This document shows, piece by piece, positions 111-4,426 of a stretch of DNA of 33,990 bases (the first letter of the stretch is position 1; every line of letters begins with the position of its first letter). Source of the stretch: an uncultured Chlorobiaceae bacterium (lineage in GTDB: Bacteria; Bacteroidota; Chlorobiia; Chlorobiales; Chlorobiaceae); NCBI GenBank assembly GCA_903836465.1, contig CAILRB010000050.1, forward strand, positions 1 through 33,990, read 5' to 3'. Both the position numbers and the translations under genes were made by a program. The notes under the pieces were generated by a model. It was not told where the DNA came from and made no database searches. It worked only from the letters and a program-made list of their open reading frames with translations.

Positions 111-130
111 CCCCGCTGCTTGCGGCGGGG
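111..130. mobile_element. GC-rich stem-loop, probable right end of an IS200-like element
   Basis: CCCCGCTG and GCGGCGGGG face each other around a tiny CTTG-type loop and form an 8-9 bp hairpin containing one G-T pair. It sits 18 bases after the stop of the partial upstream ORF and just before the first recognisable NACHT codons. IS200/IS605 transposases recognise such subterminal hairpins. The matching left end is outside the window, so the element's identity is inferred. Confidence 0.45.
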
Positions 131-1514
131 ATTCTTTATTAAAAAATATGGTATAGTCAGATTCTGGAATCGCCGAAAAAAACAGGTAGCCAAAGAGGTT
201 GTAAAAAACTCACCCAAGCTTGTGGTTCGCCCGATGCTGCTCAGCTATATTGATGTTTTTGTTAAAGGCGAGGCAAAGTATAGCAACACCTATCAGATTT
301 ATGAGGCCCTGGTTAACGGGTGGATTGAGCGTGAAGGCACCAAACGCGAGAAAGAACAGGAAAATAAAGATGCTGCCGAGTTCAAACTTAAATTGAAAGA
401 TTATTCAAGTAAAGTGGCATTGTTACTTTATGAGCGTCGCAAGGAGGCTCCGTCCTACTCGTTAAGCAGAGATGAGGCCACAGATATTGATGCCGGGCTC
501 AAGGATTATCAGATAACCGGACAGTCGCTGCTGACACGCGATGCGGCGCATCAATGGAAATTTGCCCATCGATCCATTTTGGAGTTTTTCCTGGCAAAAG
601 AGGCTCTTGAAAACCCTGAATTTGCTCAAAAACTTGCGCGTGATCTTACGGGTTTGAATATGGCAAAGCAGTTCTGTGATGAAAACGGGGTGCTATTGCT
701 GCTCAATTTTGTGCTGATGAAAGGCGGTATTTTCACAATGGGGAGCCCGGACACTGAGCCAGAGCACCAAAGCGATGAAGCACAACATGAGGTGAAGTTG
801 TCAGATTTTTATATGAGCAAATATGCTGTGACTGTTGGTGATTTCAGGAGATTTCTGGAGGATTCGGTTTATAGGACTGATGCTGAAAAAGAGAACAAGA
901 GCAGGATATGGAGTGAACAGGAGCAGACGTGGAAAGATATGGCAGGTGTCAATTGGCGTCATGGTGTGTCAGGCAAGCTCCGGGAATTAGATGACTACAA
1001 CCATCCGGTTATTCATGTGAGTTGGAACGATGCTGATGCCTATTGCCAGTGGTTGTCGAAGAAGAGCGGGAAGCTGTATCGGTTGCCGACGGAGGCGCAA
1101 TGGGAATATGCGTGCCGTGCAGGCGAGCCAAAGCCATTTAATACGGGTGATAACCTGACGACGGCTCAGGCGAATTACGATGGCAATCATCCGTATAATG
1201 GTCATGACAAGGGAGAGTATCGGCAAAAAACAGTGCCAGTTGACCATTTTTTGCCGAATGCATGGGGTTTATACAACATGCACGGTAATGTGTGGGAGTG
1301 GTGCCGTGACTGGTATGGAGATAAATTCTATGATGAATGCATCGCGAAAGGAGTGGTTGAAAATCCGGAAGGCCCTGTAACCGGTTCGGACCGTGTGCTT
1401 CGTGGCGGGAGCTGGGACGACGACGCCGAGGCCTGTCGGTCGGCTTATCGCTTTTGGAGCACCTCCGACTTCCGGGGCAGCGGCGTTGGCTTCCGCCTGG
1501 TGTTCGTCCCGTAG
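120..1514 (+). pseudogene. NACHT/STAND C-terminal remnant fused to an FGE-sulfatase (C-type lectin fold) domain
   Basis: The frame opens at a TTG inside the hairpin, so its first ~20 residues are not native. Residues 25-165 look like the region C-terminal to a NACHT ATPase (VRPMLLSYID, YEALVNGWIERE, FAHRSILEFFLAKEAL). The NACHT P-loop and Walker B are missing, consistent with 5' truncation by the upstream element. Residues 197-462 are an FGE-sulfatase/SUMF1-type domain (MKGGIFTMGS, HPVIHVSWNDADAYCQW, RLPTEAQWEYACRAG, NMHGNVWEW, LRGGSW, GFRLV). This family includes diversity-generating-retroelement targets, and the last ~30 codons fit a variable region. Proteins of this architecture are suspected sensors or defence proteins; this copy may be inactive because it lacks its ATPase half. 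An alternative is a gene expressed from a chance start as a stand-alone lectin-fold protein. Confidence 0.75.
1392..1512 (+). repeat. Candidate DGR variable region (VR) at the 3' end of the FGE-domain gene
   Basis: Codons from about residue 433 onward are GAC-GAC-GAC, then TTT-TGG-AGC-ACC-TCC-GAC-TTC and GGC-AGC-GGC, set between conserved LRGGSW and VGFRLV. Many third bases are C while first and second bases vary, as expected if AAC codons in a template repeat were copied with adenine mutagenesis. Adenines are scarce throughout. A small CCCG/CGGG hairpin (1508-1520) straddles the stop codon, where DGR loci carry an IMH-associated hairpin. No reverse transcriptase, avd gene or template repeat is visible in the window, so this is a pattern-based call. 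Confidence 0.5.
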
Positions 1515-1955: not shown

Positions 1956-1983
1956 TTGCAGTCAGTGGTTATTTTTTTATCTT
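1956..1983 (+). promoter_or_regulatory. Possible sigma-70 promoter for the leuA leader
   Basis: TTGCAG (1956-1961) and TATCTT (1978-1983) are separated by 16 bases. The predicted start near 1990 would place the leader peptide about 45 bases into the transcript. The match is only moderate and was chosen partly because of its position. Confidence 0.35.
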
Positions 1984-2033: not shown

Positions 2034-2120
2034 ATGCGTATAACGAACACAAACGACCTTCTGCTTACCCTTAACCTGCTGCTGGCAGGTATTGGCGTTC
2101 GTGGGGGAGGTGCTTTTTAG
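2034..2120 (+). CDS. leuL: Leucine-rich leader peptide of the leuA attenuator (28 aa)
   Basis: ATG at 2034 opens a 28-codon frame closed by TAG at 2118-2120. Codons 9-17 are Leu-Leu-Leu-Thr-Leu-Asn-Leu-Leu-Leu (2058-2084): seven leucines in nine codons. The reading MRITNTNDLLLTLNLLLAG has no other apparent role and lies directly upstream of 2-isopropylmalate synthase. Leucine leader peptides are known in enterobacteria (leuL) and predicted elsewhere. Low charged tRNA-Leu should stall the ribosome at 2058-2084 and free the next RNA segment. The symbol is by analogy. The coding reading is seen directly; the regulatory function is inferred from structure and context. Confidence 0.8.
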   Translation: MRITNTNDLLLTLNLLLAGIGVRGGGAF

Positions 2121-2167
2121 TTCGTTTTCGCCGTCAGAGAGAACATTGTGAAAGCCACCAGTCCCTC
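2103..2167 (+). promoter_or_regulatory. Predicted antiterminator helix of the leuA attenuator
   Basis: GGGGGAGGTG (2103-2112), inside the last codons of the leader peptide, can pair with CACC (2156-2159) and TCCCTC (2162-2167), with only a 2-base AG bulge and one G-U pair. The 3' arm is the left arm and loop of the terminator, so the two structures exclude each other. A ribosome stalled on the Leu codons ending at 2084 would leave 2103-2112 free, whereas one that reaches the stop at 2120 would cover it. This geometry is what leucine attenuation requires. Confidence 0.65.
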
Positions 2168-2183
2168 AGGGATTGGTGGCTTT
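2154..2183 (+). terminator. Attenuator terminator hairpin upstream of leuA
   Basis: GCCACCAGTCCC (2154-2165) pairs with GGGATTGGTGGC (2169-2180) over 12 bp with a single G-U pair and a 3-base loop, followed by TTTAT. The U tract is short, but the stem is very stable. It lies between the leader peptide stop and the leuA ribosome site, the expected position of an attenuator. Confidence 0.7.
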
Positions 2184-2231
2184 ATCCATTTATATATCCA
2201 TTCATAAAAAGAAGAAAAGGGAGCGATGACC

Positions 2232-3908
2232 ATGATGAATTATAAAAAATATGCGCCGTACCCCCAGGTTGCTCTTACCGGGAGAAGTTGGCCAGACAAG
2301 ACCATCACGAAAGCCCCGATATGGAGCAGTGTTGATCTTCGGGATGGCAACCAGGCGCTTCCTGTGCCGATGAGCGTTGATGAAAAGGTTGCCATGTTCC
2401 AGCTTCTGGTTTCAATCGGTTTCAAGGAGATTGAGGTTGGTTTTCCTTCCGCATCAGCAACCGAGTATGCTTTTGCCCGGCGGCTGATTGATGGCAACCT
2501 GATTCCTGATGATGTCACCATCCAGGTGTTGACCCAGGCGCGCGAACATCTGATTCGAAAAACATTCGATGCCATCAGCGGGGCGAAACATGCCATTGTG
2601 CATCTTTACAACTCGACGTCGACCTTGCAGCGGGATGTGGTCTTCCGCAAAAACAGGGAGGAGATCAAGGCAATTGCGATTGAGGGGACAGCGCTTGTTC
2701 GCCGTCTTAAGGATGAATCTGGCAACGCTGGTATTCGCCTCGAGTACAGCCCTGAAAGTTTTACCGGCACCGAGCTTGATTATGCGCTGGATGTCTGCCA
2801 TGCGGTTATGGATACCTGGGGCGCTTCTGCGGATGACAAGATTATTTTGAACCTGCCCTCTACTGTTGAGATGTCGCAGCCGAATATTTATGCTGACCGG
2901 ATTGAGTGGTTTTGCCGCAACATCAAGGCGAGAGATGCTGTCCTGATCAGTGTTCATGCCCATAATGATCGCGGCACTGCCGTTGCTACGGCTGAATTGG
3001 CCGTGATGGCTGGCGCTGACCGTGTTGAGGGAGCATTGTTTGGCAATGGTGAGCGGTGCGGCAATATGGATATTGTCACTATGGCGCTGAACCTCTTTAC
3101 CCAGGGAGTTGATCCTGAACTTGATTTTTCTGATCTGCCCCGTATTCGGGATGTTTATCGGCGCTGTACCCGTATGGATATTCATTCCCGTCATCCTTAT
3201 GCCGGTGATCTGGTCTATACCGCTTTTTCAGGTTCGCACCAGGATGCTATCAGCAAAGGGATGAAAGCGCAGCCATCTTCGCCCGGTGGCTTGTGGGCAG
3301 TTCCCTATTTGCCCATCGATCCTCAGGACGTTGGCTGCACCTATGAGGCCATAGTGCGTATCAACAGTCAGTCCGGAAAGGGAGGTGTCGCTTACGTTCT
3401 TGAGAAGGATTACGGGATTCAAATTCCGAAATGGATGCAGCCCGATTTTGCTGAGGCGGTTCAGGGCGTTGCCGATACCACAGGCGCAGAGTTGACTCCT
3501 GAGCAGATTCATGAACTGTTTCATGCGGAGTATGTAAAACTCAGGGAGCCGGTTACCCTCAAGAAGTGCCATATCACCTGGGATGATGAGGAGCCTCGTC
3601 GTCAGGATGAAGAAGATACTACCATCAGTTGTGTCGTGCAGACGAAAGAGCGGGAGTTCAGCTTTGAAGCACAGGGGAATGGTCCTCTTGATGCCTTTGT
3701 CAAGGGATTTATCAGGGAGAGCGGACTGGATTTCAGTGTTGACGAGTATGCCGAACATGCTATCGGGCGCAGTGCCGGAGCCTTGGCGGTTGCTTACATC
3801 AAGATTGTTTGTGCTGATGGCAGTCTCTCTTATGGTGCCGGTATTGATTCGAATATCAGCCTTGCATCAATCAAGGCGACGGTCAGTGCCCTGAACAGGC
3901 TTCCGTAA
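2232..3908 (+). CDS. leuA: 2-isopropylmalate synthase (LeuA, type II)
   Basis: Condenses acetyl-CoA with 2-oxoisovalerate, the first committed step of leucine synthesis. Numbering from the upstream ATG at 2226, the HMGL-like TIM barrel shows LRDGNQA (38-44), the metal-binding HAHND (244-248) and the FGNGERCGNMD signature (about 272-282). The last ~130 residues, with GNGPLDAFV, form the LeuA dimerisation/leucine-feedback domain. Length (about 558 aa) fits the longer, actinobacterial/fungal-like LeuA class rather than the ~510 aa E. coli type. ATGs occur at 2226, 2232 and 2235; GGGAG at 2219-2223 is too close to 2226 but about 8 bases from 2232, so 2232 is preferred. It stands alone behind a leucine attenuator, so both transcriptional and allosteric leucine control are expected. 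Confidence 0.95.
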   Translation: MMNYKKYAPYPQVALTGRSWPDKTITKAPIWSSVDLRDGNQALPVPMSVDEKVAMFQLLVSIGFKEIEVGFPSASATEYAFARRLIDGNLIPDDVTIQVLTQAREHLIRKTFDAISGAKHAIVHLYNSTSTLQRDVVFRKNREEIKAIAIEGTALVRRLKDESGNAGIRLEYSPESFTGTELDYALDVCHAVMDTWGASADDKIILNLPSTVEMSQPNIYADRIEWFCRNIKARDAVLISVHAHNDRGTAVATAELAVMAGADRVEGALFGNGERCGNMDIVTMALNLFTQGVDPELDFSDLPRIRDVYRRCTRMDIHSRHPYAGDLVYTAFSGSHQDAISKGMKAQPSSPGGLWAVPYLPIDPQDVGCTYEAIVRINSQSGKGGVAYVLEKDYGIQIPKWMQPDFAEAVQGVADTTGAELTPEQIHELFHAEYVKLREPVTLKKCHITWDDEEPRRQDEEDTTISCVVQTKEREFSFEAQGNGPLDAFVKGFIRESGLDFSVDEYAEHAIGRSAGALAVAYIKIVCADGSLSYGAGIDSNISLASIKATVSALNRLP

Positions 3909-3964: not shown

Positions 3965-4426
3965 TCACCACTTTTTTGAAGGCACGATAATGACCGGGCA
4001 GGATGCCTGCCGGATTACTCCTTCCGAGACGCTGCCAATGAGCAGGTGAAAAAGTGCTCCGTGTCCATGCGATCCAAGCATGATCATATCAACACTGTTT
4101 TTCTTGCTTTCACCGATAATCGCCGTAACCTCGTCGTTTTGTGCAATAATGACTGAGGTATCAATGCCTTTTTCCTGCAGCTTTGCGGCAACAGTCAGAA
4201 GTCTCTTGGATTCAGGCTCTTCGCTGAGCGGAAAACCCTCGTTATTATGCGTCTTTTGAGCGGGGAGCAATGTTTCGACTTCTGGAGGTACATCAAGAAT
4301 TGGTGAGGAGGGTGGAATGACATGAAGCAGAAAAACTTGTGCCGAAAGGCTTTTTGCAAGTTTTTCTGCTTCAGCAATAACTCTCCCGGCAAGTTCAGAG
4401 AAATCGATTGCAACCAGAAGCTTCAT
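3965..4426 (-). CDS. Universal stress protein (UspA family, ATP-binding type)
   Basis: Single-domain, cytosolic Usp of 153 aa. It begins MKLLVAIDFSELA, with the conserved Asp at 8 that contacts adenine in ATP-binding Usps, and carries the nucleotide motif G118-x2-G121-x9-G131-S ending in the CPVIIVP strand. These residues indicate the ATP-binding (MJ0577-like) subclass rather than the UspA subclass. Residues 40-70 form a longer variable loop. The gene starts nine bases after the stop of the Pmp3-like gene, so the two are probably co-transcribed. The exact stress response served cannot be read from sequence. Confidence 0.9.
   Translation of the reverse strand: MKLLVAIDFSELAGRVIAEAEKLAKSLSAQVFLLHVIPPSSPILDVPPEVETLLPAQKTHNNEGFPLSEEPESKRLLTVAAKLQEKGIDTSVIIAQNDEVTAIIGESKKNSVDMIMLGSHGHGALFHLLIGSVSEGVIRQASCPVIIVPSKKW

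What the first reader, a model, noticed from the sequence alone, without database searches (positions are those of the whole stretch)
2034..2183. Leucine attenuator with Leu-rich leader peptide in front of leuA
A 28-codon ORF with seven Leu in nine codons (2058-2084) is followed by two mutually exclusive helices: an antiterminator (2103-2112 with 2156-2167) and a 12-bp terminator (2154-2180). The spacing fits ribosome stalling. Such ribosome-mediated control is well known in Proteobacteria and much less described for Chlorobi and for the long LeuA class.
Basis: partly seen in the sequence, partly recalled or inferred. Interest (0 to 1): 0.7.

Follow-up and report, generated by a model that had tools for sequence, protein, structure and literature searches.

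The report
Leucine attenuator controlling Chlorobiaceae leuA
In front of the leucine-synthesis gene leuA, this green sulfur bacterium carries a classic "stalled ribosome" switch: a tiny leucine-rich peptide gene and two competing RNA hairpins that should let leuA be read only when leucine is scarce; the mechanism is textbook, but the switch is conserved throughout its family and seems to be shared with leuA genes of distant phyla.

Summary
Confirmed. The window holds a complete classical leucine attenuator in front of a long-class leuA (2226-3908): a promoter (about 1956-1983), a 28-codon leader ORF (2034-2120) with 7 Leu in 9 codons, an antiterminator (2103-2116 with 2151-2167) and a 15-bp terminator hairpin (2151-2183). 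All 65 aligned Chlorobiaceae sequences have an intact leader with 4-12 Leu codons. Leu is kept through synonymous changes; frame-breaking indels fall only after the Leu run. Both competing hairpins pair far better than register-shifted controls. A covariance model finds the element in 81 of 86 Chlorobiaceae genomes. No Rfam family matches. Similar elements with Leu-rich leaders precede long leuA in Elusimicrobiota, Omnitrophota and FCPU426 genomes, which fits gene and attenuator travelling together (inferred).

Mechanism (inferred, no expression data): low leucine stalls the ribosome on the Leu codons, the antiterminator forms and leuA is transcribed; with ample leucine the ribosome reaches the stop codon, covers the antiterminator strand and transcription terminates.

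Verdict: a new member of a known kind.

The parts
1956..1983 (+). sigma-70-like promoter: TTGCAG (1956-1961), 16 nt, TATCTT (1978-1983)
   Evidence: Promoter-like pair (TTGCA(A/G) - 16 - TAT(A/T/C)TT is the commonest form) found upstream of the leader in 62 of 65 relatives, mostly 40-50 nt before the leader ATG; not mapped experimentally, and the stricter consensus scan did not list it
2034..2120 (+). leader peptide ORF, 28 codons + TAG; ATG start, weak Shine-Dalgarno-like GGTG at about 2024-2027
   Evidence: ORF intact in 65/65 aligned Chlorobiaceae, 4-12 Leu codons each
2058..2084 (+). regulatory Leu codon run (7 Leu in 9 codons)
   Evidence: Leu at the seven columns in 42, 52, 36, 53, 58, 47 and 60 of 65 sequences, with mixed synonymous codons
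2036..2131 (+). protector (1:2) hairpin: leader codons 2042-2064 pair with the antiterminator strand and the bases after it (2103-2126)
   Evidence: MFE, 66% of cells paired against at most 54% slid, native partners better than foreign; its role without a ribosome is uncertain
2103..2116 (+). antiterminator 5' strand (segment 2), overlapping the last leader codons
   Evidence: pairs 2151-2167; 80% of cells paired, at most 60% slid
2151..2167 (+). shared strand (segment 3): antiterminator 3' strand and terminator 5' arm
2151..2183 (+). intrinsic terminator hairpin, 15 bp, loop TCA, weak U-tract following
   Evidence: -26.5 kcal/mol; 85% of cells paired, at most 62% slid
2226..3908 (+). leuA, 2-isopropylmalate synthase, long class (560 aa), the regulated gene; apparently monocistronic
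   Evidence: NF002991 851 bits and TIGR00970 734 bits, both over cut-off; the next ORF downstream is on the opposite strand; the other homologues found in this genome are homocitrate and citramalate synthases

Best explanation
A classical ribosome-mediated transcription attenuator that sets leuA transcription by charged tRNA-Leu. RNA polymerase starts about 1990 and makes the leader. With scarce leucine the ribosome stalls on the Leu codons 2058-2084; its front edge stays upstream of 2103, so segment 2 (2103-2116) is free and pairs with segment 3 (2151-2167) as soon as that emerges, blocking the terminator, and leuA is transcribed. With ample leucine the ribosome runs to the stop codon 2118-2120 and covers segment 2; segment 3 pairs with segment 4 (2169-2183) and transcription stops near 2184-2195. 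A protector hairpin between the leader ORF and segment 2 may favour termination when the leader is not translated. Shown here: sequence, conservation, alternative pairings, genomic position. Inferred: stalling, termination, leucine response. The cross-phylum similarity suggests the gene and its attenuator spread together (inferred).
For: 65/65 intact Leu-rich leaders. Leu kept through synonymous change, and frame-breaking indels confined to the stretch after the Leu run. Both competing helices conserved above slid controls. Native strands pair better than strands swapped between species: p = 5e-5 for terminator and protector, 0.007 for antiterminator, not corrected for relatedness. The stall and stop-codon folding model gives the expected outcome in 64/65 and 65/65 (window steps). 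One element in the own genome, at leuA; 81 of 86 Chlorobiaceae genomes, 64 of 65 good ones. Conserved promoter-like pair. Long LeuA is the only isopropylmalate synthase found in the genome, so Leu control of it makes sense.
Against: No expression data. The window's U-tract is weak. The antiterminator (-14.3) is far less stable than the terminator (-26.5), so it must win kinetically; at equilibrium the terminator forms even with the leader covered. Antiterminator covariation does not exceed column shuffles. In free RNA ending at 2168 the antiterminator is predicted over the protector, so behaviour without translation is unclear. Three of 68 relatives with readable upstream DNA lack the leader (L044, L045, L057).
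Confidence: 0.93

Rival explanations
1. The small ORF encodes a functional hydrophobic micropeptide and the hairpin is only a terminator of that small gene; leuA has its own promoter.
For: The ORF is conserved and ends before a terminator.
Against: The C-terminal half of the peptide varies freely and is cut short by frameshift or early stop in nine of 65 sequences (L048, L053, L054, L058, L073, L076, L078, L080, L103), while the overlapping RNA strand is conserved; the competing antiterminator is conserved.
Confidence: 0.03
2. Leucine-dependent control through something other than ribosome stalling: a protein- or ligand-bound RNA such as the actinobacterial LEU element, a T-box, or a riboswitch.
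For: In Streptomyces coelicolor, leader mutations of leuA were not consistent with classical attenuation (PMC1262725).
Against: No Rfam riboswitch or T-box match; a terminator and antiterminator are present here, unlike the LEU element, where the Leu codons pair with the leuA ribosome site; here the MFE does not pair the Leu run with the leuA start region.
Confidence: 0.03

Closest known systems
E. coli/Salmonella leuL attenuator (Rfam RF00512 Leu_leader)
   Same: Leu-rich leader peptide, antiterminator and terminator before leuA (established knowledge)
   Different: No Rfam match even at E up to 5; different leader sequence, long rather than short LeuA class, apparently monocistronic leuA rather than leuABCD
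Actinobacterial LEU element upstream of leuA (PMC1262725)
   Same: Leu-codon leader upstream of leuA
   Different: LEU element is described as a pseudoknot with the Leu codons paired to the leuA ribosome site; here a terminator/antiterminator switch
ilvB-II and ilvB-OMG uORF motifs (PMC10272879)
   Same: Branched-chain-amino-acid-rich uORF, terminator, one copy per genome at one gene (described for ilvB-II); ilvB-OMG also occurs in several phyla
   Different: They precede ilvB and use Ile/Leu/Val or Thr codons; this one precedes leuA and its codon run is Leu; no Rfam match in the loci of other phyla

Membership tests
Classical ribosome-mediated amino-acid attenuator | short leader ORF with a run of the regulatory codon | tested here: met
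   7 Leu in 9 codons; 65/65 relatives
Classical ribosome-mediated amino-acid attenuator | mutually exclusive antiterminator and terminator sharing one strand | tested here: met
   segment 3 (2151-2167) in both; conserved above slid controls
Classical ribosome-mediated amino-acid attenuator | intrinsic terminator with U-tract | tested here: inconclusive
   stem strong; U-tract good in most relatives, weak in the window, and not listed by the terminator scan
Classical ribosome-mediated amino-acid attenuator | stall at regulatory codons leaves segment 2 free, stop-codon ribosome covers it | tested here: met
   geometry and folding, 64/65 and 65/65; in silico only
Classical ribosome-mediated amino-acid attenuator | directly upstream of a gene of the cognate pathway | tested here: met
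   leuA
Classical ribosome-mediated amino-acid attenuator | leader is translated and termination falls on leucine starvation | not testable with these tools
   needs reporter or Term-seq data
Rfam RF00512 Leu_leader | match to the covariance model | tested here: not met
   no match at gathering score or at E up to 5
Actinobacterial LEU element | Leu codons paired with the leuA ribosome-binding site, pseudoknot | tested here: not met
   MFE of 1990-2240 pairs the Leu run within the leader; pseudoknots not searched explicitly
T-box or known riboswitch | Rfam match | tested here: not met

The most novel reading that the evidence does not exclude
A sequence-conserved leucine attenuator family, absent from Rfam, that has moved between phyla (Chlorobiota, Omnitrophota, Elusimicrobiota, FCPU426) together with the long-class leuA as one self-regulated gene cassette, and works in the recipient's own transcription-translation machinery.
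Probability: 0.5. Interest if true: 0.5.

Novelty: new member of a known kind. Interest (0 to 1): 0.35.

Why it matters
It extends textbook amino-acid attenuation, with strong comparative support, to the green sulfur bacteria, for which I found no such description in the held papers, and provides a covariance-grade family for annotation. The shared element in front of long leuA in candidate phyla gives a testable case of a gene transferred together with its RNA switch, which would bear on how attenuators spread and would suggest that transcription and translation are coupled in these uncultured groups.

Tried and rejected
Rfam search of the window, of the leader alone and of relatives: no regulatory family. 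The weak second hit in the own genome (L117) is the groEL-queC intergenic terminator, rejected. Weak hits (32-39 bits) in other Bacteroidota: six regions fetched, they look like ordinary terminators between unrelated genes, not leuA attenuators. A second leuA with its own attenuator in this genome: the other homologues are NifV and citramalate synthase. Centring a genome search on another phylum was not possible. Literature for Chlorobi: none found in held papers. The tool's terminator scan missed the hairpin, presumably because of the weak U-tract.

Full report
What is there. Window 2034-2120 is a 28-codon ORF, MRITNTNDLLLTLNLLLAGIGVRGGGAF*, with seven Leu in the nine codons 2058-2084. It lies 105 nt before leuA (2226-3908), a 560-aa 2-isopropylmalate synthase of the long class (NF002991 and TIGR00970 above cut-off). 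Such a Leu run occurs in 2 of 5000 dinucleotide shuffles of the upstream region, and at one other place in the six frames of the window. The RNA 2034-2190 folds far better than shuffles (z = -4.9). The terminator is 2151-2165 with 2169-2183 (-26.5 kcal/mol). The competing antiterminator is 2103-2116 with 2151-2167 (-14.3 kcal/mol). A long protector hairpin (about 2036-2131) pairs the leader with the antiterminator strand.

Conservation. LeuA loci were gathered from 148 genomes of the phylum sample and from the GTDB contig collection. Of 68 Chlorobiaceae loci in the second set with readable upstream DNA, 65 carry the element (64 aligned with the window, plus the truncated L089). All 65 aligned sequences (window included) have an ATG leader with 4-12 Leu codons. 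At the seven Leu columns of the window, Leu is present in 36 to 60 of 65 sequences with mixed codons; column 2082, for instance, is CTC 21, CTA 16, CTT 15, CTG 8. Indels inside the Leu run add up to multiples of three. One-base and four-base deletions occur only after the Leu run and lead to an early stop, while the overlapping antiterminator strand is kept. So the Leu codons are conserved as codons, and the 3' part as RNA.

Structure tests. Terminator: 85% of cells paired, at most 62% when slid. Antiterminator: 80% against at most 60%. Protector: 66% against at most 54%. Column shuffles are exceeded by the terminator (covariation score and percentage paired, 0 of 500) but not by the antiterminator, whose columns vary little. 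Swapping strands between species weakens all three helices (p = 5e-5, 0.007 and 5e-5 for terminator, antiterminator and protector; no correction for relatedness). When RNA downstream of a ribosome stalled at a Leu codon is folded up to the end of segment 3, the antiterminator forms in 64 of 65; with the ribosome at the stop codon the terminator forms in 65 of 65. One search shows the steps for the window. At equilibrium the complete terminator always wins, so the antiterminator must act by forming first, as in other attenuators (own knowledge). In free RNA ending at 2168 the antiterminator competes well with the protector, so behaviour without translation is uncertain.

Promoter and gene context. 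A promoter-like pair, most often TTGCA(A/G)-16-TATATT or TATTTT, lies upstream of the leader in 62 of 65 relatives; in the window it is TTGCAG-16-TATCTT at 1956-1983. leuA appears monocistronic: the next ORF (3965-4426) is on the opposite strand. The genome's other homologues found are homocitrate synthase NifV and citramalate synthase, so the attenuated gene is the only isopropylmalate synthase found.

Distribution. A covariance model of the antiterminator strand to terminator region (R1) finds one place in the own genome with a strong score and matches in 81 of 86 Chlorobiaceae genomes, 64 of 65 good ones. Two of these matches are weak or partial (G159; G182, whose match covers only the terminator half, as in L044). 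Outside the family only weak scattered matches (32-39 bits) appear among other Bacteroidota; the six fetched look like ordinary terminators. In contrast, in front of long leuA in non-Chlorobi genomes the model finds L101 (FCPU426, 39 bits), L102 and L097 (Omnitrophota, 39 and 34 bits) and L096 (Elusimicrobia, 32 bits); L098 (Omnitrophota) scores 21. All have Leu-containing leaders, such as MKLNNLLPGLLLSLLR* (L097) and MKQKLTNLNLLLLNLLLQLKTAADGVF* (L096). L100 (Spirochaetaceae) and L107 (SAR324) have Leu-rich leaders and a hairpin, but no significant model match. A 20-sequence LeuA tree groups the R1-bearing genes except for one long-branched member without the element (two label changes, which may be one gain plus one loss). 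Sampled sister families of the same order have no LeuA of this class; their best matches are below 31% identity or absent. This fits horizontal acquisition of leuA with its attenuator; direction and date are not determined, and it is an inference.

Exceptions. L044 and L057 keep the terminator hairpin but have lost leader and antiterminator strand; L045 has neither. L044 looks like a deletion next to a tRNA-like gene when compared with L042. These are metagenome assemblies; if real, they should have low or altered leuA control.

Comparison with known systems. It works like the enterobacterial leu attenuator but is not a match to Rfam Leu_leader. ilvB uORF motifs (PMC10272879) are parallel cases. 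No held paper that I found describes it for Chlorobi, but a 2010 survey that may touch on it could not be read. Verdict: real, strongly supported, mechanistically ordinary, new member of a known kind.

Noticed in passing
L044 1340-1483, L057 1399-1442, L045 upstream of leuA: Three Chlorobiaceae MAGs lack the leader; L044 (deletion beside a tRNA-like gene) and L057 (Chlorobium chlorochromatii MAG) keep only the terminator hairpin in front of leuA.
   Followed up: partly
L048, L053, L054, L073, L103 leaders: A one-base deletion just after the Leu run shifts the leader frame to an early stop (e.g. ...LLLRALWL*), while the downstream RNA strand stays conserved: a natural experiment suggesting the C-terminal peptide is dispensable.
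   Followed up: yes
L096 273-848: In an Elusimicrobia MAG the attenuator is separated from leuA by about 575 nt that includes a tandem repeat of a roughly 52-bp unit ending just before leuA.
   Followed up: no
L100 and L107 upstream of leuA: Spirochaetaceae and SAR324 long leuA genes have Leu-rich leaders and strong terminator-like hairpins of unrelated sequence: possibly independent attenuators for the same gene class.
   Followed up: partly
   Followed up: partly
window 120-1514: Upstream gene carries a C-terminal FGE-sulfatase (SUMF1-like) domain (Pfam 226 bits) after an unassigned N-terminal part; function unknown.
   Followed up: no
L112 7-3078: In the same genome a citramalate synthase gene lies just downstream of an isopropylmalate dehydratase large-subunit-like gene.
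   Followed up: no
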